Source: Phycomyces blakesleeanus NRRL 1555(-)
Lineage: Eukaryota; Mucoromycota; Mucoromycetes; Mucorales; Phycomycetaceae
DNA: 64,000 bases
Direction: 5' to 3'
Assembly: GCF_001638985.1 (NCBI RefSeq)
Contig: NW_017265136.1
Span: 2,340,269-2,404,268 of the forward strand
The notes under the pieces were generated by a model, which ran no database searches, had not been told where the DNA came from, and saw only the letters and a list, made by a program, of their open reading frames with translations. Both the position numbers and the translations under genes were made by a program. Of this stretch, positions 4,791 to 60,734 are shown one piece after another. Numbering within the stretch: the first letter of the stretch is position 1; each line of letters opens with the position of its first letter.

Positions 4791-7700
4791 ATGTCCACAA
4801 TTTCTGAACTCTACAACGAAAAGTGCCATTGTGCTGAATGTAGTCAGAACGATCTCGGCTATAGTTTTGTTGCCAGAAGAACTGCTCAACGTCATAACAA
4901 AAGGGCAAGACTAAATGCCATAAGATGTGAAAGGGGTACAATATTTGAATTTATTTAATTGTATTGTAATCCATGAAATAACGTGTTGTAATAGACATGT
5001 CTACCCAAAGAAATATGATGGAGGTCGATGATGAACATAAGATTTATTTAATTCAGATACCGTTAGATATTAACCAAGTGTTATATTCTAAATGTAGCTA
5101 TCTTAACCCATCAACCCAGAGCCCTGGAATAATCGTACACTCAGACAAACTCACCTGTTTGGGAAGGAGCTTCAATGTCTGACACTGAAGACGTTTCCGT
5201 TACTAATGACGTGATCAGCAATGGCGACAATGATGACAGTGGAAGCAACAGCAATGAAATCAGTGAAGACGAAAGCGAAGACAATGTTATTGAGCTCGAC
5301 GACAATGAATTGAATAGTGAAGGTCAGTTAGTGTTAAAAAATTTTTAAAAAAAAAGCGTTAATTTTTTTTTATAATAGACCCTTTTGCCACCCCCGATAT
5401 GCCCCAGAACCCAGTGCACAGGTTCATTGCTACTTTTGTAGTGGTGTTCGCTTCCCACTATGTGGTTGACAAGGGCGCCGTTGTCTTGATCGAGTTCATC
5501 AACAAGCTTTTGACAATTTACGAGCAGGATTTCCAACTGCCCTTGAGCCTTCCTGGTCTTCAGCGCATGACAGGTTTCTCAGCCATGACCAAAGGCATAA
5601 AGAAATTTGTTGTGTGTCAGGATTGTCACAAGGTGTACGAAGAAAGTGCATCTGTCCCGTCTCATTGTGATTTCGTAAAGCTTGGTGCACGCTCGTCTTG
5701 CAACTGCCAATTGACGAAAACATCAGCATCGGGTGCTTTGGTGGCCAAGCGTTCATACTTGTACCAGTCCGTTGTTAATACTTTACGAATGTTTTTTCTT
5801 CGTCCAGGATTTGAGGATAAAATTAGACATTGGAATCACGAGCTGAAGATGGTGGATACGATGTGTGACATATACAACGGTGCCATGTGGAAGGAGCTCA
5901 AAGACAAAGATGGCGTGCAATTCACAAAGGATTCGCGTTCATTAATGTTGACTCTCAACATCGACTGGTTTCAACCTTTTGATAACGTCACGCACTTGAC
6001 TGGTGCCATATACCTGGTAGTAAACAATCTGCCTCGCAATGAAAGATACAAGCCAGAGAACACACTTCTTGTAGGATTGATGCCTGGCCTGAAGGAACCC
6101 AAATCCGAAGAGATAAACCATTATCTCCGGCCTATGGTAGATGATCTGATAAGATTGTATGAGGGACTGGCAATCCCAACTTTCGAGTGTCCTAGTGGTG
6201 TCCACGTCTGTGCCGCATTGATGATGGTGGCCTGTGACATCCCAGCAGCAAGAAAGACAAGTGGTTTCACCTCGCACAACAGTACATGTGCATGTTACAA
6301 GTGCAACAGACATTTACCTTGCTTGGAAAACGGTGTCAATGTTGACTTTCGTGGGTTTGACTTCTCTTGGTGGGTGCTTCGTGACGGTGTAGAGAACAGG
6401 TTGCATGCTGAGGAGTGGGAAAGTGCTAGTACCCCCTCAGAAAGGCATCGCCTGGAGGTCGAAAATGGTGTTCGATGGTCGCAGTTGCATCGCCTTGGAT
6501 ACCTTGATCTAGTACGTGGAACGATCATTGATCCCATGCATAATTTATTCCTGGGAACGCCTAAAAGATTGATGGATCGTTGGATCAAAGACGAAGACAT
6601 TCAAGATGGCGATTTTGCGGCAATGCAGAAGACTGCAGAAACGATGATTGTGCCTGGTGGATACACCTCTTTGAACTCGAAAATAGGAAAGCAGTTTTCG
6701 TATATGAAGGCAGACGAGTGGAAGTCATGGGTGCTTGTATACTCGCCAGTTCTGTTGAAAGATGTTCTTGCAAAAGACAGATTCGAAAACTGGATTAACT
6801 TTGTTGATGCATGCCGCCTGTTGATCAAGCCAACGATCACATTCGATGAAGTCAACACTGCCCATCAGTTTCTTCAAACTTTTTGCACCAGATGTGACGA
6901 GCTGTACAACGCCAAAATCCTCACCTGTAATATGCACCTACACCTCCATCTTCGAGATACAATTCGTGATTTTGGACCAGTGTACGGTTATTGGCTATTC
7001 GGGTTCGAGCGGTTTAATGGGTTGTTAAAAAATTTGAAGACAAACAGGAAGATTGGGTTTGAAGAAACATTTATGAAGAAATTTATTGAAGATGTGTACA
7101 AAGACGATCTTGTCAACAGTTTCCTTCAGAGTACCCGCCAGACATCTGCATTTCCTCTCCTTACCAAACTCACTTCTTCCTTTACACCCGCCACCATTCC
7201 ATCCATCCGTCAACGTACCTTCTGCATACAGTCATTTGTCGAGGCTTCTGAAGATCCAAATGTACTTGTAAAAGGCAACGAACCTCTCTCTCCTTCCGCA
7301 TTCCCTCTATCATTAAAATCCGCTACCACAATGAGTGAAATTTACTATGTTCATCTCTTACAATACTACAAAGTTGCGTACAACAATGAACAATTAGTTC
7401 ACTTTCAACAAGCGTCAGAATCACCATACTTTGTCGACAATACAATCACCCTGTTGAAATACATCAACATCCTTGGGCAGGTCTATAAGGGTAAAGGTGA
7501 ATCTGGAAGTCATGGCTCTCTTGTACAAGCAAAGTTCATTGGAAGTACTAGTGAGCATATCGTCGCATACACGGGTCAAATACAGTACATTTTCACCCAT
7601 TGTTTCACTCCTCCACCCACCTCTTCATCCCTTACTCCCTTGCTCCACACCCATCGCCGCCCAACACAACTTCTTCATAATTCTCAACATACTTTTGCAT

Positions 7701-7906
7701 TTATCAAATGGTACACACCCGAAAATGATAAATTGCGAGAGTACGAACACGTTGAAACCTGCTTTCCAACATTTTCTCCTGACGATTTCCAATGTGTATT
7801 GCCAGTGCATAGAATTATGTTAGAAGTAGCAACTGCTGAGCACACAACACGCAGAAAAGTAAAAAAGATGCTGGTCATTCCTTTGCCAAAAAAACAATAC
7901 ATTTAA
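4791..7906 (+). CDS. tnp2-family (CACTA/EnSpm) transposase of element B, apparently intact in its main exon
   Basis: ATG at 4791 opens an exon with a zinc-finger-like CHCAECSQND and TAQRHNKR, ending near 4935. Middle exons (from 4995, and an acidic one ending at 5322) are less certain. The last exon, 5379-7906, is fully open for about 840 residues. It carries the tnp2 RNase-H-like core: LNIDWFQPFDNVTHL (first Asp), VGLMPGLKEP, ACDIPAARKTSG followed by CACYKC (metal-binding cysteines), IDPMHNLFLGTPKRLMDRW, and MKADEWKSW. The C-terminal domain has FAFIKWY and VLPVHRI blocks that recur in the element A remnant at 16883-17488. The product should cut and join element ends in the nucleus. No inactivating change was seen in the main exon. 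The splice pattern between 4995 and 5322 was not settled. Confidence 0.8.
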
Positions 7907-11034: not shown

Positions 11035-14000
11035 TTATTTGCGTATGCGTTTGCTAAAGCGTGTAGGTTCTTGTGTTGGATGTGTACGCTTGTTATGTAT
11101 AATTGTAGATTTATTGGTGGGTTTTTCTGGACCTCGTCTTTGCCAATATTTGTCAATTATGCTCAGATCGTTGAAATTGCTTGTGGGCTCCCAAGTGTCT
11201 TGATCTGGTGCATAGTTTTTCCAGCGCACTCTGTAAAGATAGTCGCCTTTTTCTTGACGATGATCAATGATGGCCTGTATCTCGTAAAAGCTATCTGGAG
11301 ATATAACAGTATCTTGTGAGATCAGCTTTATCTGCGAAGGTGGGATGTTTCGTGATAGAAGTGCTCCCGTTTCGTCTTGCAAAATGTAGCTGCCTCCCTT
11401 TGTTCTGCCCTTGACTGTGAATGGTCCTTCATATCTTGGGTCCGTCTTAGACTTTCTTAATATGTTCTTTATCATCACGTTGCTGTCGTTCGGGAACTCC
11501 ATTATTATTTTATGGTCTTTGTCGTGTTTTCCTTTATCAGCAGCTTGTGTAGCTTTGATGCGTTCGCAGATTGCTGGGAATACGACAGTCTCCATTTGTT
11601 CAATTCTTTTTTTCATATCTGGTAGACTGTTAGGAGCGTTGTGCGTGCTCTCTGTTTTTCTGTAATCAGCAAAATCGTTTGGTTGTCTTGCAAACATTAG
11701 AGTGAATGGGTGTGTGCCATGTAGCTTAGCATGTTTGCTATTTATGGCTAGCTGTGTGCTTGGGATGTATATGTCCCAGTCTCGCTTTGCTCCCTGTGTT
11801 CTCTTGTTGATGACTTCCTTGGCTGTGTGTACCCATTTTTCAGCAACTCCATTTGCTCGCGGATGATAGGGTGTTACAAGCCGATGATCAATTCCTGCTG
11901 TATTTGTGAAAGTCTTGACGAGTTCGTTGACAAACTCAGTACCATTATCTGACTGTAAAACCTTGGGTAGGCCGAAGTCGCAAAAGATTTGAATGAGTTG
12001 TTTTGCAATTGTTAAAGATGTCTTATCTGGAATTGCGCGGAGTATGCAGAATCGGGAAAAGATGTCAACCATTACTAGCATGTAATGATTGCCGTTGTGC
12101 GAGGTGGTGTATGGGCCAGCTAAGTCTATGGCCCAGTGTTCACCTGGTTGACTGGCTGTAATAGGCTTCAGCGGATGATAGCCGTGTTTTGAGACATTGA
12201 ACCGTTGGCAATTCAAGCAGCGCTTTACTGTTTCTGTTGCCTCTTGCTTGAGATTAGTCCAGTGTAGTCCATCACTATGTATAGCGTTGACAATAGCGTC
12301 TGTACCAAAGTGGCCGAGTAGATGTGCTTGGTTGAGTAGATGCTGTCTGTCTTTGATAGGTGGTGTTATCATATCCCCTGTGTTGTGCATGCGTTGGATA
12401 GCATGTGTATTTTGTGTGTTCTTTATTCGATGATTTGTAGAGATTTCTACATTTTACCCTCCCCCAGCGGTTTTTCCGAGGTGAAAAGGCGCGATAAAAC
12501 ATCTGGCAATATATTGTCAATGCCAGGGCGGTGGACTATGTCATAAGTATAGTCGCAGAGTACATCAAGCCAGTTTATCATCATAGGGTTGGCAATTTCT
12601 TGCGTGTGAAGGTACGTGAGAGCCTTGTGATCCGTGTACAACGTGAACTTGTTACCTCACAAGAACTTATGGAATTTAGTCAAAGCATAAACGATGCCCA
12701 AAAGTTCACGTTTGGTGACAGGATAGTTGCGTTCAGATTTGGAAAGTGACCGTGCCATAAAACCAATGTAGCGATATTGGTTGTCTATGATCTGATAGAG
12801 CACGGCGCCAATACCTGTGTTGGAGGCGTCTGTGGCAACCAGAAATGGTTGGGTTGTGTCAGGGTGGCTTAGGACTGGTGCGTGTGTAAGTGCAATTTTG
12901 AGCTTGGAAAAAGCTTGCGTTTGTTCTTCTGTCCATAACCCGTGTAGTGAGTCAGCATTGCGTAGTTTGTCCAGAGGAGAAGACAGTTGCGACAAGTTGG
13001 GAATGTGCTCACGAAAATAGTTGACGAGACCCATGAAGCGTTGAATGTCTTTGCCAGACTTGGGTTGTGGCCACATGGTAGCATTGTGAACCTTGCGAGC
13101 ATCAAGATCAATACCTCTAGTGCTTACAGTAAAACCCAGTAACGATACAGAAGTTTGTGCAAAGTGACATTTCTGCGGATTGAGAATGAGATTGACATCC
13201 GTGAGCTTTTGAATAGCCGTTTGGACGTGTTTAACATGGTCAGACATGTTAGTGGAAAAAACTACAATGTCGTCGACAAATGCAGTGACATATGGAGTAT
13301 CGTGATAAATCAAATTGACTACTCGCTGAAACTTGGACGACAATGGCTTGAGACCAAAGGGACATCCTCGAAACATATACTGATTGCCTTCAAACGTGAA
13401 TGTAGTCTTGTGTCTATCATCTTCATGAATTTTGAATCAATGAAAGGCACTCTTGAGGTCTAGCGTAGTGAAGATTGTTGCACCCCGTAGCCTGTGAAAG
13501 AGTTCAGAGATGAGTGGCAAAGGGAATCTGTCGTCAGGTAGCAGAGTGTTGATGGCTCTGGGATCTAAGCAAGGACGCTTGCCTGTGGGATTACCAAACT
13601 CATCTTTTTTAGGAGCGAATGTAAGTGGGCTGTTCCACTTAGTATTGACGGGTGCCCTTTGTATGGTGCCATCAGTAAGCCATTGGTTTATATGTTTGGC
13701 CATCAGTGGAACAAGTTGTAAAGCAATAGGATATTGTCGTCTATAGACTACTTGACCTGGGGGCGTTGGTAGTCGTACAATAGATTCCTTAACTGTACAA
13801 AATGAAGTGATGGGTATGGCTTCATTGGCTTTAATAAAGGGTAGTAGAGCCTTCATGAATTGAGAATGTTCAGTGGGTGTACCAGCTGGTGAATTATTGG
13901 GCTTTTCTATTTCAGCTATGGGTGTAGGGGTCTGAGGTGTATTAGAACCGTACCAACTCTCTGCTAGTCCCAGTAAATGAATACCAAGGCTTGGCATTAA

Positions 14001-15668
14001 ATCTGTACCAATACTAACATCTATATTCTCAGCGAGATCCAAAACTTCAAAAGAATGTGTAATGTGTTTGTTGTTATAAAAAACTTTTATTGGTTTTGTT
14101 ACTCCTAGTCTATGAGCTATAGCGTTACTAGTGGCCAACACGATTTTCCCTTTGCGAGGAATTATTGACCACCCAAACTTGCTACAGAGCTTGGTGTTGA
14201 CAGAGCTGATGGTGGCCCCGGTGTCTACCAGTGCCCATAGTTTTTCCTCTTCTAAAGAAATAGGAACGAGATAGGAGTGAGTAGACCGTTTACTGAGATC
14301 TACGTGAGTGCCCGTGTACTTACATGGGGAGCACTGTTCAAAGTCCATGTGCATGGACTGATCATCCTCAGATGTGCTGACATCTGAGGGAGAACTGTCG
14401 TCAGAGACAGTGTGGGCAGAACGGACGGCGAAGTGGGGAGCAGAGCCCCTGGGAGAGCCAGACGCAGAACTGGAAGAGCTGGAGGAACCAGCGACGGAAG
14501 AACAGCGATGTTTGTGGGACCAAACTTCACCGCACCAACGGCAAGGAGCAGAACCAACGTACTTGTTGATGTAGGGGGCTTTTTCAACCCGATTGCCCCC
14601 TTTTGCTGCCAGTGCGTTCTTGAGGATGCGGCAGTCTTCGGAGTCATGGCTGCCCTTGCCATGGAGCGAGCACCTCTTGCTGGAAGAGCGCTCACGGCTC
14701 TGTGTGGCTTCACGGGGAGAACCAGGGGAGCGGGCAGAAGAGGTGGCAGCAGACATGCAGGTCGTCTGTTCTGGGCTGAGATGGCGGCCTTTGGGCACAG
14801 GGTCGTTATGCAAGCTCATCAGAAAGACCTTGCTATAGATGGACCGGGCCAGGGAAGCAGCCTTGTCAATGGTGTCCCGTTTTTCCCTGGGCATGTTGAC
14901 TTGTAGCAAGGAGACTTGTCTTGCCAGCTCGGGCAGAAGTGTGGCAGTGTATGCAATGGCTGCCTGCATGTTGTCTGCCACGTCAGCTTCCCGACGAACC
15001 CTTTGGTAACGGTCCGTGTAGTTGCTGACGGTTTCTGTAGGGCTCATTCTCATGAGCATCAGCTCATGTGTGAGCTGTACTTGACGCTCAAGGTCGTTGA
15101 TTCCATATACCTTGATAAAGGCGTTGCGGACAAAGGACCAGGGAAGCTCGGGGGAACTACGAAGGTAGTTGTCATACCAGGAACGCTGTTCTCTTGACAG
15201 AACAATGGGGAGTAGACGGTGCCAGTCCACATTAAGGTCCAGACTGTATGAGTGGAGCACATCCTCGAATTTGTCCAGACACTCTTCAATGGACGAGTAG
15301 ACCTTCTGGGTGTTGTCCCACTCGTTTCCTTGCCACTGAAGAACTGGTAGCTCGCGAGGTACAACACGGGATTGGGGAGCAACTTGCTCAGCGCGGGCAG
15401 GACCAGAACGAAGCAAATGGGTATGTGCTGACATGAGGATAGCCAGATCGCCTTCTGTGGCCGCAATTGTCAGCCTTATTTGATTCTTGGTGTCCTCAGG
15501 CTGGTTTTGTTCGATGGCATCGGCTAGGGCGATGGAAGCAGCAGCCAGGAGATCCCTAAGTCTGGTAATAGCCAACATGGACTTGTTGGCCTGTTCATTG
15601 CTTGCGATTTCACTTGTGTTGAGGCTGCCCTGAACACTGGGGGCGGGAGACTGGTTTTCGGAAGACAT
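11035..15668 (-). pseudogene. gag-pol polyprotein of the chromovirus (two nonsense codons and one frame change)
   Basis: ATG at 15668 starts gag. In order: a retrotransposon gag region (WDNTQK...WYDNYLRSS), Cys/His-rich segments (CSLHGKGSHDSEDC, PCRWCGEVWSHKHRC), an aspartic protease motif (LWALVDTGATISS), reverse transcriptase with LDLKSAFH and the active site AFVDDIVVFS, RNase H (ATDASNTGIGAVLY), an HHCC integrase with the DDE residues in WAIDLAGPY, LQSDNGTEFVN and YHPRANGVAEKW, and a chromodomain (YRVRWKNYAPDQDTWEP). TGA codons interrupt RT after DLKSAFH (13437-13439) and RNase H after KFHKFL (12657-12659). The frame then shifts by -1 near 12450. The integrase and chromodomain frame (12390-11035) is itself open. 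Chromodomains of this clade usually direct insertion to methylated-histone chromatin. Confidence 0.9.
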
Positions 15669-15701
15669 GTTTTGATTGTGATAAGAGTTCACCGTAAAAA
15701 A

Positions 15702-23532: not shown

Positions 23533-26464
23533 TTATAGGTCTGCAAGAGAACCAAGTGACAATTTTGGGCTGCGGTTAAGCTTTGGCCACACTATGTATG
23601 TTGTTGTTGTTGTTGTATTTATAGTCATATCCAACTTCACCAAACCAACCAATTCTTTGACATCTGTCAGGTGAACTACCTTTGGCTTCATTTGCTCATT
23701 GTTAACAACTGGTATACCATTTACCAAACGGACTGCCGCAATCTCTACAAGAGCAAGCAGCCATCTCTTCTTGTTGAGCTTGTGTTCAAAGAAGACAACA
23801 ACTATTCCAAAGAAATCCTTGTAAACCAGGGAGTATGCAGAATTTATGTTGCGGTTTTCATCAACCTGAATCTGTAATCTGATGTTATGTGCCTCCCTTA
23901 CACAATTTTGGTCGAGTGCAGAGTCAATCACACAACCATTGACAAATGCCTTGCGGCTAGTTTGTATAGCTGCTTCAATCATACTACACTCTTCCCCCTT
24001 TGATTCATAGAAGTCTTCAAGAAGTTTCGAAAGACAAGAAATGCCTTCAAAACTATCTCGGATCGTTCTATTCCTCAAAGGCCCCCAGAACTCAATATCA
24101 GACCTAGCACCAACACGCTCACCCTCATCTGTCAACAGCCAACCAGCAGTGGAATCTTCATATTGTAAGTGTCGTGCTGTTCTTGCTTCTGTAATCATGA
24201 CAGTGGCTCCGGCCTCTGCTTGTCGTATTTGTGCTAAGCCAAGCATGATATTGCCAGCGTTAACATTTATAGCAGAATTACTCTTGATAGCCCTTGAGTA
24301 TTCACCAATTGCTCGTTCCACGGATCTGGCGCTATATGCACGAGGTGGGCCATATGCGTCAATCATGAGAGGATAGTGCTGAAGAAGATGCTGGTTTATA
24401 GTGAAAATATTGATTTTGATTTTTCCACTTGTAAGCAGCGATTCCAGATACATGTTCCATATTTCAAGTTTACTGAAGAAAAATAGTTAGAATAAATAAT
24501 AGAATAACACATAGCTTTTACTAAAATATACCTTTTGATAGAGGTTTGTTCCTCTGCTGATAACTCCCAGCTCATGAGTAGGTTACATGCTTGAACCAAG
24601 CCAAGTAACGTGTTCCGGGCAGTTGCATCTCCAATATGCTCTGCCACCAGCGTAGGGACGACGAACAGAAGAAAGTCTGCCCAATCGACGGCCTTGAACG
24701 ACCCGGGGTTCTTGTATACATCTCTCCAATTGCCATGGAAGGATGTAGGGATGGTATTTCTTGTTTTGTACATTGCTGTACCGATCTCCTTCCAAACACC
24801 AGAAGAAAGAGCAAAACAATGGTCTGTTCCATAGGTACCAGAAACCAAACCCCAGACCTGCTTGCTTATTCCATGGCAAAGTCCATGCATCTCATCAAGG
24901 GCAAAAAACAATGGTCTAGAGAATACCTTCAATGTTGCCAGAGGGGATTGTCCGTTTAACCCTTTGTAGCTGGATGCACTGGCCTGGGAAAAATTCTGGA
25001 AACTTTCCAGCGTACGGATATTGGTGCTGGGCAAAGTTCTGAAGTATTGTCCATGCTTGGGACATTGGCTGACAACATGACAGATATGGCAACCGTCTTT
25101 GCTCATATGTCCAGAATGACATGCCAACTTTTCTAAGGCAGGAATGTCACCAGTGACCATTAAGACATGTACCTTGGCACGAATGGTCTCGTTTGATGTC
25201 TTGACGACCATCCCTTTGCTCTCCAACACCAGAAGCTCTTTCATCGTTGGTTCCATGAACGACCAGAAATTGGCAGGTGCACCTGGACCTGGGATCATTG
25301 CGATCTGGAGCATTCTGCTTCTCTCATACCGGACCATGGGATTCAGGTTAAGAATGGTGGCATAGAGGATCGTTACAGAACCAGAAACATTGTGTGGCGT
25401 GAATCCATCAACAGACAACAAAATTGCAATGTCATCTTTTCCAGAAAACAGATGTTTTGCTTGCTGGTAAACCTGGCTATCAAACACATTGGTTTTACTT
25501 CTATCCGAGCTTGGGTCATGATTATGGCAGTAATGCATATCTGCTCTTGTATTCTCATTGGCTAATGCAAGAGCCAGTTGTCTCGCCAATGGAAGCTGTA
25601 TCATCGTGGCAGCAGCAACCAGATCACCACCCTCGGTTTCTCCGCGTCTTGTTTTGTACCGGCTTTGTCCACAGTTGGAGCACTCAGTCTGGGATGGACT
25701 GGTAAAGAGCATACATCACCTCTGACAGATATCATGAACTGTCTCTTCAACACCCGAGAAATGCTTCAAAAGCTTTTTGCCAAGATGGGGAGTACATGCT
25801 TTGTATATAATACAAGTTGACGTTTCCAAAATGCTGTTGAAATGCTTGACTATCATTTCATGAGCATTGCGGGAGATACCAAAATCCTTAATGATCTTGA
25901 GAAACTCAAGGTTCTTTGCATTGTCTTTGTCAGGGGTAGGTGCAGGCTGACTGAAGTCAAAAACCAAAGGAGATGTTTTGTTTTCAATGATGTCCATGTC
26001 ATTGCCAAGTTCCGCATCATACTTTAACAAGGTAAATAATAATTAGCATTATATAATAAGATATATATATATATCTTACCATAGACTCATCATTATCATC
26101 ATTACTGAATATATTCATAATTGGATCATCATTATCTTTGCTGTTGAGTGTATCCATGATCTGATCTTTGATTGCATCAGCACATTCTCTGCTTGTTTAT
26201 GAAGATAACAATATAATTAATTACACTTTCTAATAGTATGTATGTGATTTGTAGTCTTACTTGATAGTGTCATTTGAGACAGTATTCAAAACAACACTGA
26301 CTTGTCCAGGAACAGGCGTGGTCTGTGAAGTCTGGATATCATTATGTCTTCTATAATAGTTCTTAAAGCATTGAGCTCTACAACTCTTGGCTTTTTTTTA
26401 AATTGGTGTGGCACTCTTTGCATTGATTGCATTGATAACTATCAAGGATTGAATTTGAAGACAT
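23533..26464 (-). pseudogene. tnp2-family transposase of element C (frameshift and nonsense)
   Basis: ATG at 26464 opens an exon with CNQCKECHTN. A run of A residues near 26392 shifts the frame, and with one base fewer the frame continues CRAQCFKNYYRRH. After introns, the exon ending EETVHDICQR meets an in-frame TGA (read GTCAGAGGTGATGTATG on the minus strand near 25715). It then continues TECSNCGQSRYK, LLSVDGFTPHNVSGSV, IAMIPGPGAPANFW, VTGDIPALEKLACHSGH, CHICHVV and LDEMHGLCHGISKQVWG, the tnp2 core. An intron at about 24480-24540 leads to the last exon, ending at 23533. It belongs to a different subgroup from A and B, closer to tnp2 forms with a GDIPA-HSGH core. The gene is divergent from the accessory gene at 26801. 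Confidence 0.8.
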
Positions 26465-34549: not shown

Positions 34550-36636
34550 TTAAATTGACTGAAGATAAAGCTGTTGCATATCATAGACGTGCTTGGCTTC
34601 ATCATCTGTTATATACTGGGATAGTTTTGTAAGATCGTGATGAGATTGATGTATTGTTTGATTTGTTTTTGTACACTAGTCAAAAAAGAGTCTAGATTGA
34701 TTGCTGGAATTTTCAGTGTTTTGTGGAGTTTGTGGTATGTGTATTTGATTGGTAGTAATGGCAGAAGTGGTAGAGAAGAAAATAGAGTTCGATGTGTATA
34801 TCTTCAATAGATGCATATGTTCGCAAGATCTGTATCTTCTTTTAAAATCAAAGCAAGGACATGAGATAATTGTGTTTGTATCTGAAATCTCAACTATATA
34901 AGCAGTATTTTGGTCAACAAATGACTGAACCTGCTATTGTCTACTATCCACTGAATCAGGAGCAGCAATTCTTGCTTCTCTTTCATTATCATCAACTTCT
35001 TCTACTTCTATCTCGTGTATTCTTTATTCTCTTGTAAATGCACTCATTGCCTCATTGTTAGACATCACTCTATCATACTTTTGAGAAAGATAGTATTCAA
35101 CATTGTGAACAAAAATGAATATAAGTTTATCTAGACGTTTGTTCCGGAATCTCTTCATGAAGACAGTTTTCAATTGGTTATGCCAAGACTCAATATAATT
35201 ATTGGTGAACATATGTGAAAATTGGCATTCAAAATATGCTCTACTCCAAAGCTTAAATTTGTTTTCAGTACACCAGTTTTTCTCGAAGTAGTCCAAAAAG
35301 ATACATTAGTTGTTAAAATCTTCTTTGAACTATACAAGTTTGTGATGAAACTGATCTAAATCTTCTTTATATACAATCTCTTGAAGAGATTTCATCATTT
35401 TATCATGAAGAAGACGAGCCTCAGATAGCAAAGAGCCAGAAATCTTAACGGAGTCAGAGAGCTTTCTGTTCCATGCTTGAGTTATGTGAAATATGCAGAA
35501 TTGGATTTGTGTGGTAAAAAAAGTGGTTTGAATTGCATGGACTTTGGCCAAGCAGCAATCAATTGTTATTTGTTTTGGATTAACAAGCAAGAGAGAAGAC
35601 GTTAAGAATTGCAGCCACTGCACAATGGGGCCCACATCTCTATCATTGGTAATCATATATGCTACAGGCCAGCCTCTACCAATTTCTTCATTATGGATAA
35701 GAAGAGTATAAAGAATCTCATCAATTTTTCCAGAGATACCATAAGTGGCATCCAAACAAAAAGAAACAGCATTTTTCATCTTATTTTGCTGTATTGGTGA
35801 CATAAAACCACAAGTAAATAAGTTTAGACTTGGTGAGTAGCTAGTATTGGTCTTGAAAATTGAGAAGTTCATTGCAGCAAGTTTCTCATTTATCCAAATC
35901 ATGAAGGAAATCATTTGATTCTTGTCAAAATGATACAAAGTCTTATTTATCTATAAACAATTAGTTAAATAAAATTTTATTTAATATAAATTCATATGTT
36001 TACCTTGTTCATCAAGTTCCAAATGTTATAATAGTTGACCTTACAATCAGAACTTCTTCCATATCTATCAATAGTTCTCAACATGTCGATACGTATCTGG
36101 CTGGCAGATTTAGATGATTGCTCTAATTGTTGGGATAGTTCATGCAGCTACTTTTTGGCAAGAGAAAGAGTATGAATATCGTCACAGATATCACCAGGAG
36201 TATGATCAGCATGATCTTTGGTCAAGGTTATCTCATACCACTCAGGTGTCTTAAAGAATTCTCTGACGCAAAGAAGAGCAGGACACTTATTTTTCTTAGC
36301 TCTCTTTTGAACTACTCGCATCTCTGTCTTAGATTCATAAGTTCCTGAACAATGACACGAGTACTTCTGTGAGAAGCACATCTTAATTCCACTGTTTTTG
36401 GCTTCTTCAGCAGTGATATCAGTACGTCGTTTGTTGGAGTTACAAATAGTCTATTTGACCGCACAGGATTCACCAAGTTCTACAAGGCATTCTTTCCACT
36501 CAGATGTTCTAACTCTAATAGTATTGTTGAGTCTAAGTGTCATTACTCCGGGAATAGATGAGCACTCCAATGCTTCTGAAATTGTTGCAAGAGTGTAAAT
36601 GTTTTCATTCATTGGTGTAATATTGACAGTAGACAT
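34550..36636 (-). pseudogene. MULE (FAR1/MuDR-type) transposase, heavily decayed
   Basis: ATG at 36636 (MSTVNITPMNENIYTL). Domains in order are a FAR1/WRKY-GCM-like zinc region (CFSQKYSCHCSGTYES, KKNKCPALLCVREFF, LTKDHADHTP), the MULE DDE core (FCLDATYGISGK as Asp 1, WPVAYMITNDRDVGP, ITIDCCLAKVHAIQ as Asp 2, QFCIFHITQAWNRKL, FTNNYIESWHNQLK with Glu) and a C-terminal SWIM zinc finger (CPCFDF...CEHMHLL). At least six in-frame stops occur, for example after ESCAVK, SLAKK, HHKLV and AFTRE. A short intron lies near 35945-36005. No terminal repeats were recognised. It is much older than the MULE at 45640. Confidence 0.75.
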
Positions 36637-45566: not shown

Positions 45567-45639
45567 GTTTAATTTGCTTGTTAAATTCAATAAAAGCATA
45601 AAGAGTAAAGAATTATGATACTCTAAATGAGTTCTGGTA

Positions 45640-45945
45640 GGGCAATGATATGGACATGCAAGAAAAATTAGGGTCAGACATGCAAAAAAAGACCAAAAGG
45701 GAGAATTAAACGTGACGTCAATTGTAATTGGCCTTTGGGAGTGTTACAGACAAATTGAGCACTGATAAGACATGCAAAAGCAACCAAATTGAAGAATTAA
45801 ACGTGACGTCACCTATAATTGACTTTTAGGAGTGTTACCAACAAATTGGACACTGATAAGACATGCAAAAGCGAGCAAATTGAAGAATTAGACGTGACAT
45901 CACATATAATTAGTTTTGCATGTTACACGCATTTTTTTTGGGGGA
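45640..45945 (+). repeat. Left terminal inverted repeat of the MULE, with CRE palindromes
   Basis: Inverted match to 49371-49661. TGACGTCA, the palindromic CRE/ATF site, occurs at 45713-45720 and 45804-45811, and the variant TGACATCA at about 45896. The tandem units are nearly identical, with the outermost unit most diverged. Confidence 0.85.
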
Positions 45946-46031
45946 TCAGATCAATTACCCTCCAGATTGCCAATTAAATCACTGCCCTTTTTTACTACAA
46001 TATCAGTGCATAATTTTTTTTGACATTTAAC

Positions 46032-49000
46032 ATGAGCAACATTAACAACATCAACAACACCAACGACTTTGTCATTGTTAGCGAGACGTCGAAGAAGTAC
46101 GATGCTGCCTTGACTGAGTTCAACTCAATTTTTCTTGTTGGAAGAGAATTCTCTTCAGTTGTAGCTGTTCGAGAAGCTGCCAAGGCATATGGTGTCAAGC
46201 ATAACATTGCTCTCACTACTGAATATGTATCAAGCTCTCGCATCAAATTGATTTGCAAGCACTCTGGCGAATATAGAGATACCAGAAAAGCTGAGAAGGT
46301 TGCTTCCAAAACATCAGTTATGGATGAAACTCTTTCTGGATGGGAGAGAAAGCGCGAAAAAGACGCGCAGAAGCATGGCTGCCCTTGCTTCATGTATACC
46401 AACACCAAGAAGGGCGGAAAGCTCACTGTGCACTCCTGTGAGGTAGAGCATAACCACCCCATTGAAGAAGACTGCAGAGCATATGCTATGCACCGCAAGC
46501 TCTTGCCTGAGGCAATGACGCTTGTAGTTAAGCATCTGGGGAACAATAACGATGTATTCACCATCATCAACAGTTTGAAGATAAATGGATATACAAACAT
46601 TGTTTGCCATGACATTGCTAATATAAAGCAACATTTCGGAAAATCGGAAAAAGGAAAGGAGATGTTTGACTTTATCACCACTCTGCAAGATCTTGACTTC
46701 CATGTCAGGTATTCTGTCGGTAATACAGAAGACAATCAAGTGAATATGGTCTTTTTTGTGCATCAGGATGCGATCAATGAGGCACGAAGAATGCCTGAGA
46801 CTGTCATTATTGATGTCACATATAAGACAAATAGTCATCGAATGACTTGGGTCAACATTGTTGATACTAGCAATGTGAGTGAAAACCCTCGTACCACTTT
46901 AAAGACGTATCCAATTGCCAGTGCTTGGGTAGAGCATGAGACAGAAGAAAATTATCTCTGGGTGCTTAGCTGTCTTCGCGATGCAGTCTGGCCCGATGAC
47001 AACAATAACAACAACAGCAACAGCAGCAACAGCAGAAACAACAAACAAACAACACTTCTCCCAGATGTTTTCATCACAGACAATGAAAAAGCATTGAGAA
47101 ATGCTATTACTTGAGTCTTTCCTGAGTCGAAGCAGTTGTTGTGCTATAAGCATATCAAAGACAACTTTAAAAAGCAATTGCTTCTGATGATGAAGGGAGA
47201 TAAGAGTAGCAAAAAGAGAGATCTGTTGGATAAGCTGTCAGAATCCCTTGACCTAATTGCTTTAAAATGCATTACACATCAAGAAGTAAAAAACGAAACA
47301 AATGGATACCTTGAATTTGCAAAGGAAAATTGCAAAGACCAGGGAAAAGCTGCTAGTGCTTTTCTTGAGAAGTATATATAAATTTTTTAAATTTGATGTA
47401 AACAGTATTTAACTATAAAAAATCGTGTTTTTTTAATATACTTTATCAGAAAAACGAAAGACAAGGAAAACTGGGTGAACATGTATGTTTACAAACATGC
47501 CCATTTTGGCAATTGTATGTCGGACTGTGCAGAAAGTGCCCATGCTTCTCTCAAGCATTCTCTTGGTACTTCCTCAGGTAAACTGAAGACAGTTACCCTT
47601 AAAGTAACAAAGTGGTATGACGAGTTGGTAAGTTTATTCTATACTATTTTATGCATTTATTGGTTATAATATATTTATAAATTGTACAGGTTGCAGATCG
47701 CAAGCATCGGCTAATGGTGGAAAGCCTTGGAGAAGGAACAAAAATTGTGTTCGATAAAGTCAATGCCGCCAGACTAAATGACATTCGTCTTAAAGTCTGT
47801 AGATTTGCAATGGATCAAATCAAATTAGAATTATCCAAATCCATTATACCCGAAAAACTAGCCAAATAGTGCAAATGCCTCATACAATACAACTACCTGC
47901 TTCCTTGTTACCACACACTTGCCAAATTCGATACTATCCCAATCTCCTGCATCCCAAGACGCTGGAGAAAAAACTCTCTAGAAGGAGAAAGTAATATATG
48001 TAATAATAGCAATAATTACGTGACGATTTTCTCATATAACATTTTATTATGTAAACCATTTAACTATCCAAAATGCAACCCCAGTACCCCCAAACATCAA
48101 CAATATCAAACCAATAACCCCAAAATTCAACTATGCTCTTGAGCTTATTTGCAAACATTTTGCCAATGCTCAGAGCAAACAAGAACAAATCAATATATAC
48201 CAATGGATAGAAAAAACTTTGAAACAAATCAACGCACAGAAACTCAAAAACCTTAAGGGCCCAACAGTAGTTGAAGCCATTAAAGGCCGACCAAAAAATA
48301 CCAAGCGCAAGATGATTGCATTAGGGCATTGCATCAATACCGAAAAAGAAAAAATCACAAAAAAAATTAAAACAGAAAAAGAACAAAAAAAGTAAGATTT
48401 TAATATTGTTTAGATTTAATTTACTAAATCTTTGCTTTGTTTTCTAGGCAAAAAATATCCTCAGCTAAAGAGCAAAAAGCCATAAAAAATATTATCAACC
48501 TTGGGTTACTATGCGATCCCACATTACTAACAAATCTCACAATCGCACCAAAACATATATCAACAATCTTTTCTCCTGAAGCAGACGGAAATTGTGGGTA
48601 CAGGGCGATAGCAATGGAAGTGTACCAGGACCAGGAGGAGTGGTCAAAAGTAAAAGACAAAATGCTAGAAACATTTTTAAAGCACCAAAACAACTACTAC
48701 CACGGAAGAATGGAGCATGGCAATATGCCTGCATCCAATAACCCACTAATTCGCAGTCTCCAAGACAAGCGCTCACCTCTCCCCCAGCAACATTGGTTCA
48801 GTACAATCGACCATCCTCAACTTGTAGCCAATACATTTAGCAGAGCAGTGGCTGTATATTGGAATACTCCAATTGAAACAGGCGACTGTCTTTTTGTTCC
48901 ATTTGCTACCTTGCCAGAAAAAGTGGAACCAATAATTATTATCTTAGATGTAAACCACTTTCTTCTTGCCAAGCGCAAAAACACTCGAAATTTCTGCTGG

Positions 49001-49072
49001 CCAAAAATCAACCCCTTTCATAAAAGAATAATTCAAAAACATGGCCTTGAAGATTATTCTTTGATGTACTAA
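46032..49072 (+). pseudogene. MULE transposase fused to an OTU-type cysteine protease domain (two nonsense codons)
   Basis: ATG at 46032 (MSNINNINNTNDFVIVSETS) is preferred over an upstream TTG. There is a FAR1-type DNA-binding region (LICKHSGEYRD, HGCPCFMYTN, VHSCEVEHNHP), then the DDE core with Asp 1 in VIIDVTYKTNSHRMTW, Asp 2 in FITDNEKALRNAI and Glu in SDCAESAHASLKHSL. Next come a SWIM-like finger (CKCLIQYNYLLPCYH) and an AT-hook-like GRPKNTKRK. After an intron ending at 48447, the last exon has the OTU catalytic Asp/Cys motif EADGNCGYRAIAMEVY and the His block ILDVNHFLLAKR, ending at 49072. A TGA (47112-47114) stands before VFPESKQLLC, and a TAG stands just before CKCLIQ. Introns lie at about 47375-47450, 47627-47690 and 47988-48060. 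OTU domains remove ubiquitin-like proteins; the benefit to a transposon is inferred. Confidence 0.85.
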
Positions 49073-49370
49073 CAATCAAGGTATGGCTTTTAAACTAGAA
49101 TTATCTTGAATTATACTAACTTTTCATATATATCTTTTTTAGATTTTTTTTTTACTTTTTAGATTCTATATTTATCTCTATTATCAATATTCCCTTCTGT
49201 TTCTATTCAATTTATTATTATCTTTCTATTTTTCTATATTTCTATATTTATCTTCTTTACAATCTTTCATTTTTATTTTTATATCTATCTCATTATCATT
49301 TTTTATATTTTTACAATCAACATTAATTTTGAAACATTTAACAAATATCAAGGCTGACCCCCCAAAAAAA

Positions 49371-49661
49371 TGCGTGTAACATGCAAAACTAATTATATGT
49401 GATGTCACGTCTAGTTCTTCAATTTGCTCGCTTTTGCATGTCTTATCAGTGTCCAATTTGTTGGTAACACTCCTAAAAGTCAATTATAGGTGACGTCACG
49501 TTTAATTCTTCAATTTGGTTGCTTTTGCATGTCTTATCAGTGCTCAATTTGTCAGTAACACTCCCAAAGGCCAATTACAAGTGACGTCACGTTTAATTCT
49601 CCCTTTTGGTCTTTTTTTGCATGTCCGACCCTAATTTTTCTTGCATGTCCATATAGATCCC
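49371..49661 (-). repeat. Right terminal inverted repeat of the MULE, with CRE palindromes
   Basis: Mirrors 45640-45945. TGACGTCA occurs at 49491-49498 and 49582-49589, with the variant TGATGTCA near 49400. Confidence 0.85.
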
Positions 49662-49676
49662 CTAAAAAAATTATTT

Positions 49677-56109: not shown

Positions 56110-60734
<4,625 letters not shown>

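What the first reader, a model, noticed from the sequence alone, without database searches (positions are those of the whole stretch)
46032..49072. MULE transposase fused to an OTU-type protease domain
One gene runs from a FAR1-type zinc region through the MULE DDE core, a SWIM-like finger and an AT-hook-like segment to an OTU domain with intact DGNC and NHF motifs. Plant MULEs with ULP1-type SUMO proteases show that peptidase capture is possible. An OTU fusion in a fungal MULE would be a parallel solution aimed at host ubiquitin control of the transposase or chromatin.
Basis: partly seen in the sequence, partly recalled or inferred. Interest (0 to 1): 0.75.

Follow-up and report, generated by a model that had tools for sequence, protein, structure and literature searches.

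The report
Fungal MULE transposon carrying OTU domain
A decayed jumping gene in the fungus Phycomyces encodes a transposase whose tail is a ubiquitin-protease-like (OTU) domain; relatives show that selection kept this tail and that Mucor and plants have similar proteins, so one can now ask directly why transposons carry such domains.

Summary
Window 46032-49072 is one five-exon gene inside a 4,023-bp MULE (45640-49662) with 307-nt TIRs in Phycomyces blakesleeanus. The OTU exon is spliced in frame: among 40 aligned copies in three subfamilies the last intron has GT in 38 and AG in 39. Between subfamily representatives OTU dN/dS is 0.07-0.09, like the transposase (0.07-0.10); the linker is 0.21-0.39. 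OTU-like hits lie downstream of 46 of 51 close and 45 of 47 distant listed MULE cores in the genome. Two distant families have open fusion models (1,002 and 1,007 aa). Mucor saturninus has fused gene models, and two plant FAR1-related proteins share the layout with Cys replaced by Tyr. So it is not fungus-only; a Hydra MULE with OTU is already tabulated.

The window copy is damaged: two stops and a broken splice acceptor. Cys and His are conserved, but the canonical Asp/Asn two residues after His is absent, so protease activity is unproven. Best reading: a transposase with a tethered OTU-fold module that edits, or only binds, ubiquitin-type conjugates and helps transposition. Side finding: distant families carry SUMO-acceptor-like repeat exons and (I/V)DLT tails.

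The parts
45640..49662 (+). Whole MULE element, 4,023 bp (GGGCAATGATATGGACATGC ... GCATGTCCATATAGATCCCC)
   Evidence: ends fixed by comparison with sister copies; no TSD in this copy (TTCTGGTA / TAAAAAAA)
45640..45944 (+). 5' TIR, with two imperfect 91-nt tandem units (45685-45775, 45776-45866)
   Evidence: inverted-repeat pair 45638-45944 / 49358-49664, 307 nt, 97%
49358..49662 (-). 3' TIR, with two imperfect 91-nt tandem units (49391-49481, 49482-49572)
46032..47371 (+). Exon 1: FAR1-like region (about 46239-46463) and MULE DDE core (about 46803-47165; D codons at 46812 and 47079)
47112..47114 (+). In-frame stop TGA of this copy
47450..47627 (+). Exon 2: third catalytic residue of the transposase (E codon at 47532)
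47690..47990 (+). Exon 3, including SWIM-type C-x-C...C-x-H (about 47870-47914)
47867..47869 (+). In-frame stop TAG of this copy
47991..48054 (+). Intron 3; acceptor reads AA in this copy and in L041, AG in the other 38 of 40 aligned rows
48055..48391 (+). Exon 4: linker with AT-hook-like KGRPKNTKR (48282-48308)
48392..48447 (+). Intron 4, joins linker to OTU exon
   Evidence: donor GT in 38 of 40 and acceptor AG in 39 of 40 aligned rows; sequences
48448..49072 (+). Exon 5: OTU-like domain; Asp 48584, Cys 48593-48595, His 48956-48958; His+2 at 48962 is Leu

Best explanation
The locus is a damaged copy of a Phycomyces MULE transposon whose single gene makes a FAR1-like / DDE transposase / SWIM / AT-hook protein that is spliced in frame to a C-terminal OTU-fold domain (shown by sequence comparison). 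Selection has kept the OTU part as tightly as the transposase part, so it most likely helps the element move (inferred). The transposase brings the OTU module to the TIRs and the excision site, where the Cys-His protease, or a ubiquitin/UBL-binding pseudo-protease, removes or engages ubiquitin-type conjugates on the transposase itself and on nearby chromatin or repair proteins (inferred, untested). Confidence: about 0.95 for the anatomy, about 0.5 for the enzymatic part of the mechanism.
For: 40 collinear or partly collinear rows aligned, three subfamilies about 23-30% apart in DNA. Intron 4 donor GT in 38 of 40 and acceptor AG in 39 of 40. dN/dS OTU 0.092, 0.067, 0.091; transposase 0.069, 0.074, 0.101; linker 0.209, 0.223, 0.385 in the three comparisons of one representative per subfamily. 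No in-frame ATG between the previous stop and the Cys codon in 38 of 40 rows. Pairing of listed MULE cores with a downstream OTU: 46 of 51 and 45 of 47; controls 2 of 99 upstream and 2 of 99 on the opposite strand. Open spliced fusion models L059 (1,002 aa) and L057 (1,007 aa), built on separately open MULE and OTU frames. Mucor fused models P0012 and P0013. OTU profile A3 against the PDB: all 6 hits at E<=1 are OTU proteases, best OTUD5 7.5e-7. Mobility: perfect 8-bp TSD in 7 of 10 copies with both ends, and a nested insertion whose joined flanks restore a TIR.
Against: His+2 is Leu in 38 of 40 rows (1 Phe, 1 gap) and V, I, Y or T elsewhere, so the canonical triad described for OTU enzymes (PMC3950621) is incomplete. 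Both plant relatives found have Tyr for Cys, and Pfam lists no OTU in them. No full-length copy of the window family was free of stops: 2 of 40 rows had none, L017 and L041, and both lack the 5' part in the aligned stretch. The Pfam OTU scores are under cut-off. The fold model is poor (pLDDT 53). Published models P0003, P0005 and P0006 splice past the His motif. Some Mucorales models end without an OTU (P0015; P0016 partial; P0017). 31 of 76 distant OTU hits had no listed MULE core upstream, although the MULE list was truncated. The splice search accepts only open frames, so openness of the short linker exons is not an independent test. No transcript evidence.
Confidence: 0.6

Rival explanations
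1. Pseudo-protease: the OTU-fold part no longer cleaves anything and serves as a ubiquitin/UBL-binding or dimerisation surface on the transposase.
For: Asp/Asn at His+2 absent in every row with letters; Cys to Tyr in both plant relatives; strong selection would also fit a binding role.
Against: Cys kept in 38 of 40 Phycomyces rows and His in 36 of the 39 with letters; Cys kept in all 9 fungal rows of A3 including the distant families.
Confidence: 0.3
2. Self-processing protease: the OTU domain cuts the fusion protein or other element products instead of acting on ubiquitin.
For: Location at the C-terminus of a long protein after a fast-evolving linker.
Against: Besides the exons of this gene and short sense fragments, the ORF list of the element shows only antisense ORFs, so no second product is evident; the best sequence relatives are deubiquitinases.
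Confidence: 0.06
3. The OTU exon is a separate gene, or a host gene that happens to lie inside the TIRs.
For: Non-coding sequence separates the ORFs; some Mucorales gene models end before the OTU.
Against: Intron 4 in frame with conserved splice sites; no ATG before Cys in 38 of 40; fused published models P0001-P0004 and Mucor P0012/P0013; open multi-exon fusion models.
Confidence: 0.03
4. Passenger: the OTU domain was captured once and is kept without helping transposition.
For: MULEs often carry captured gene pieces (PMC6446971 passages).
Against: OTU dN/dS equal to that of the transposase over near-saturated synonymous divergence; present downstream of 91 of 98 listed related MULE cores in the two identity groups.
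Confidence: 0.05

Closest known systems
MuDR-6_HM, Hydra MULE (group 14 in Dupeyron et al. 2019, PMC6446971; Table 1 passage seen)
   Same: MULE with one ORF and an 'Ovarian Tumour Gene' motif
   Different: Animal element with no zinc finger or TIR listed; sequence not available here, so the relation of the OTU domains is untested
Ginger1 transposons (Bao, Kapitonov, Jurka 2010, PMC2836005; passages seen)
   Same: DNA transposase with a C-terminal OTU (or Ulp1) domain; the authors propose a ubiquitin/SUMO role in transposition or repair
   Different: Gypsy-integrase-type DDE core, not MULE; animals
Plant FAR1-RELATED SEQUENCE 5-like proteins P0018 (Tripterygium) and P0019 (Tanacetum)
   Same: MULE core, GRP AT-hook, OTU-like tail in the same order; P0018 also keeps the SWIM cysteines and histidine
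   Different: Catalytic Cys replaced by Tyr; OTU similarity weak (17 and 13 bits) and not listed by Pfam; whether transposon or domesticated gene not established here
Ulp1-carrying plant MULEs (KIU/Kaonashi, Vandal VANC; review PMC13317346 passages)
   Same: MULE carrying a ubiquitin-like protease domain
   Different: Ulp1 (SUMO protease class) and, as described there, in an accessory gene rather than in the transposase
Helentrons with OTU and/or VTD domains (PMC9741609 passages; PMC6431247 passage, which also names certain fungal Helentrons)
   Same: DNA transposon carrying OTU; PMC9741609 says of the viral and transposon OTU domains it discusses that none had been tested for activity
   Different: Rolling-circle Rep/helicase elements
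MULE-Mucorales (group 5 in PMC6446971)
   Same: Mucoromycota, SWIM finger
   Different: Listed with 40-bp TIR, 10-bp TSD and no extra domain; here 307-nt TIR, 8-bp TSD, OTU

Membership tests
MULE superfamily of DNA transposons | MULE transposase domain | tested here: met
   PF10551 54.9 bits, cut-off 27.6
MULE superfamily of DNA transposons | DDE residues | tested here: met
   D, D, E intact in the window copy; D1 31, D2 36, E 35 of 40 rows, with 4, 4 and 3 gaps
MULE superfamily of DNA transposons | Long TIRs | tested here: met
   307 nt, 97% complementary
MULE superfamily of DNA transposons | 8-11 bp target-site duplication (range as given in PMC6446971) | tested here: met
   perfect 8 bp in 7 of 10 copies with both ends; not in the window copy, L018 or L022
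MULE superfamily of DNA transposons | Mobility | tested here: met
   nested copy in L020 with TSD; joined flanks align over 300 bp to a TIR, 96%, 1 gap
OTU cysteine peptidases | D-G-x-C motif with catalytic Cys | tested here: met
   Cys in 38 of 40 rows; 9 of 9 fungal rows of A3, Tyr in both plant rows
OTU cysteine peptidases | Catalytic His | tested here: met
   36 of 40 rows, 1 gap; invariant in the 11 rows of A3
OTU cysteine peptidases | Asp/Asn two residues after His completing the triad (PMC3950621) | tested here: not met
   Leu in 38, Phe in 1, gap in 1 of 40; V, I, Y, T elsewhere
OTU cysteine peptidases | Curated Pfam score (PF02338 or PF10275) | tested here: not met
   14.0 vs 23.3 and 16-18 vs 24.3 bits; of 11 rows of A3, 5 match PF10275 and 4 PF02338 at E<=1, best 0.007
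OTU cysteine peptidases | Profile relationship to solved OTU domains | tested here: met
   6 of 6 PDB sequences at E<=1 are OTU; OTUD5 7.5e-7
OTU cysteine peptidases | OTU fold | tested here: inconclusive
   pLDDT 53 model; Foldseek top 18 of 33 hits all OTU but none at E<=0.001
OTU cysteine peptidases | Deubiquitinase activity | not testable with these tools
   needs protein
Plant Ulp1-MULEs | Ulp1 (C48) domain | tested here: not met
   no C48 match in Pfam scans at E<=1
Ginger1 transposons | Gypsy-type integrase core | tested here: not met
   the core matches MULE, no integrase family listed at E<=1

The most novel reading that the evidence does not exclude
Mucoromycota and plants share an ancient MULE architecture (FAR1, DDE, SWIM, AT-hook, OTU), and in some Phycomyces families it has become a ubiquitin/SUMO device: tandem microexons add SUMO-acceptor-like IKQEPLDP cassettes, and the protein ends in a SUMO-interacting-motif-like (I/V)DLT tail. 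The transposase would then act as a SUMO-guided deubiquitinase that shields itself or the excision site from SUMO-targeted ubiquitylation.
Probability: 0.15. Interest if true: 0.8.

Novelty: new member of a known kind. Interest (0 to 1): 0.52.

Why it matters
Transposon-encoded OTU domains have been noted in Helentrons, in Ginger1 and in one Hydra MULE, and PMC9741609 (passages) says of the viral and transposon OTU domains it discusses that none had been tested for activity. Phycomyces offers two loci with open fusion models from different families (L057, L059), dozens of copies, and a selection signal suggesting that the OTU part matters to the element. That makes the open question 'why do cut-and-paste transposons carry ubiquitin proteases?' testable. 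The OTU tails fall under Pfam's cut-off (PF02338 gave two matches in the whole genome at E<=0.01), so surveys that rely on Pfam may have missed them.

Tried and rejected
Separate OTU gene: rejected on splice sites, phase, lack of ATG and fused models. Chance neighbour: rejected by collinearity of the copies and the pairing controls. Domesticated host gene: rejected for this family by multiple copies with TIRs and TSDs. Structure of the OTU exon: the alignment allowed for folding was too shallow (pLDDT 53), so the Foldseek list is only supportive. SUMO-motif enrichment in the linkers: 2 psi-K-x-E sites in L059 against 0.22 expected from shuffles (1.9% reach it), 1 in L057 against 0.94 (no enrichment); post hoc, so only a lead. 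The automated splice search found no model for L055 (0 models) and four candidate models for L059, of which I took the longest. Protein searches scored only the candidates sharing most words, so absence from other taxa is not shown; the third (P0013 OTU region) returned four proteins, all Mucor. Ten paper searches (listings seen) and passages of papers showed no description of an OTU-carrying fungal MULE. A fungal survey by Muszewska and colleagues that I recalled could not be read: the id I tried, my guess, was not held. So 'not in print' is limited to these searches.

Full report
What is there. The window lies in Phycomyces blakesleeanus: the best protein hits carry that name and the contig lengths of several of them equal contig lengths of the genome. 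A 307-nt inverted-repeat pair, 97% complementary, brackets the finding. Comparison with sister copies fixes the element at 45640-49662, 4,023 bp. The gene has five exons.

Copies. A search with the OTU exon listed 41 matches (40 of 55 candidates scored, so a lower bound); 20 of them cover the whole exon at 93% or more. I cut out 38 stretches and aligned 40 rows including the window. The rest fall mainly into two groups about 70-78% identical to the window element over the coding part, with some mosaic or broken copies. Of 10 copies with both ends found, 7 have a perfect 8-bp TSD; the window copy, L018 and L022 do not; one further pair of ends in L020 came from the nesting and was not counted. 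L020 holds one copy inserted in another; its outer flanks, joined with one copy of the 8 bp, align to a TIR over 300 bp at 96% with one gap. So the family moved as a cut-and-paste element.

The fusion. Intron 4 joins the AT-hook linker to the OTU exon: donor GT in 38 of 40 rows, acceptor AG in 39 of 40, while intron bodies differ between subfamilies. Between the last upstream in-frame stop and the catalytic Cys there is no ATG in 38 of 40 rows, so the exon is unlikely to be a gene of its own. Published models agree: P0001-P0006 run from the end of the transposase core through the linker into the OTU part, with the SWIM region whole in P0001-P0005 and cut short in P0006; but P0003, P0005 and P0006 splice past the His motif at the end.

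Selection. Comparing one representative of each subfamily (L025, L041, L049; Nei-Gojobori, synonymous sites near saturation, some short regions without an estimate), dN/dS of the OTU part is 0.092, 0.067 and 0.091, of the transposase (residues 250-612) 0.069, 0.074 and 0.101, and of the linker 0.209, 0.223 and 0.385. For a transposon gene such constraint implies that the part helped past transposition (inference).

Wider in the genome. I searched the genome with the DDE core and with the OTU part. The MULE search found 215 matches but listed only the stronger ones; I kept 99 listed rows, dropping exon-2-only rows and second pieces of a copy. Of 137 OTU matches I kept 127, dropping 10 short or second pieces. 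Of MULE cores at 56% identity or more, 46 of 51 have an OTU hit within 4 kb downstream on the same strand; of those at 50% or less, 45 of 47; one core at 54% was in neither group. Controls: 2 of 99 upstream, 2 of 99 on the opposite strand. One of the five unpaired close cores (C36) appears to be a copy split by an insertion, since its OTU and TIRs lie further away; the other four were not followed up. In the other direction 45 of 50 close and 45 of 76 distant OTU hits have a listed core upstream; because the MULE list was truncated, the 31 unpaired distant ones are undecided. Two distant families have open fusion models: L059 (1,002 aa) and L057 (1,007 aa), each five exons with GT-AG introns. 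The MULE and OTU frames of these loci are long and open on their own; the short linker exons were chosen by a search that accepts only open frames, so their openness is not an independent test. No full-length copy of the window family was free of stops among the 40 rows; the two rows without stops, L017 and L041, lack the 5' part.

Other organisms. Profile A1 found Mucor saturninus P0012 and P0013, single gene models of 936 and 957 aa with a MULE core and an OTU-like tail (58 and 85 bits to the Phycomyces OTU profile in a 19-protein set). A later search added Mucor saturninus P0021, with only part of the core, and Mucor mucedo P0020, with SWIM, AT-hook and OTU only. P0018 (Tripterygium) and P0019 (Tanacetum) have MULE core, GRP AT-hook and OTU-like tail in the same order (P0018 with the full SWIM pattern), with weak OTU scores (17 and 13 bits), no OTU listed by Pfam, and Tyr for Cys. 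Models P0015, P0016 (partial) and P0017 (Rhizopus microsporus) end without an OTU, so loss or incomplete prediction occurs. The protein searches scored only candidates sharing most words, so the spread is a minimum.

Is it an OTU protease? Pfam scores stay under cut-off. A profile of 11 such domains matches six PDB sequences at E<=1, all OTU, OTUD5 best at 7.5e-7. The fold attempt was poor (pLDDT 53); its best 18 Foldseek hits are all OTU but none is significant. Cys is present in 38 of 40 and His in 36 of 40 rows. The residue two after His, Asp or Asn in studied OTU enzymes (PMC3950621 passage), is Leu in 38 and V, I, Y or T elsewhere. I therefore call it an OTU-fold domain with a conserved Cys-His pair, not a proven deubiquitinase.

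How it may work. Shown by comparison: one gene, one spliced frame, long conservation. Inferred: the DNA-binding transposase brings the OTU module to TIRs and cut sites, where it removes or binds ubiquitin-type conjugates on the transposase, chromatin or repair factors. PMC2836005 proposed a ubiquitin/SUMO role in transposition or repair for Ginger1, and PMC9741609 proposed protection from proteasomal degradation for Helitron-encoded VTD domains. An unexpected lead: in L059 and L055 the linker contains tandemly duplicated exon-plus-intron units of about 130 nt, each adding ...K(Q/K)EPLDP. In the distant families the protein ends in IIDLTHI (L057, L060, L061), VDLTIT (L055, L062), VDFTIT (L056, L063) or PIDLTPK (L059); L054 and L058, whose OTU frames are interrupted, do not show it, so 8 of 10 loci do. 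These resemble SUMO acceptor sites and SUMO-interacting motifs (recalled consensus, not tested); the window family lacks both the repeats and the tail.

Novelty. MULE with OTU is tabulated for Hydra MuDR-6_HM (PMC6446971) and transposase-OTU fusions are published for Ginger1.

Noticed in passing
L059 2166-2600, L055 2390-2780: Tandem duplication of a whole exon plus intron (about 130 nt period) adds IKQEPLDP/IKKEPLDP cassettes between transposase and OTU; looks like SUMO acceptor motifs (recalled consensus).
   Followed up: partly
C-termini of L055, L056, L057, L059, L060, L061, L062, L063: In 8 of 10 loci of two distant MULE-OTU families the protein ends in (I/V)D(L/F)T plus 2-3 residues, resembling a SUMO-interacting motif (recalled); L054 and L058 (interrupted frames) and the window family do not.
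   Followed up: partly
subfamily A alignment (window 45950-49200 and sisters): C>T and G>A make up 1,024 of 1,286 changes from the column majority in 19 rows, 453 of them (44%) at CpG, suggesting methylation-linked or RIP-like decay of these copies.
   Followed up: partly
L021: The two distinguishable element ends are swapped relative to the coding strand, as if the interior had flipped between the long TIRs.
   Followed up: no
window 11035-15692 (-): Gypsy-like retroelement remains with gag, RT/RNase H, integrase and chromodomain.
   Followed up: no
window 5399-7906 (+) and 24396-25712 (-): Transposase_21 (tnp2, CACTA-like) ORFs.
   Followed up: no
window 35330-35938 (-): A second, partial MULE transposase ORF (PF10551, 30.0 bits).
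   Followed up: no
window 56249-57553 (-): ORF with an I/LWEQ domain (Sla2/talin-like host gene).
   Followed up: no
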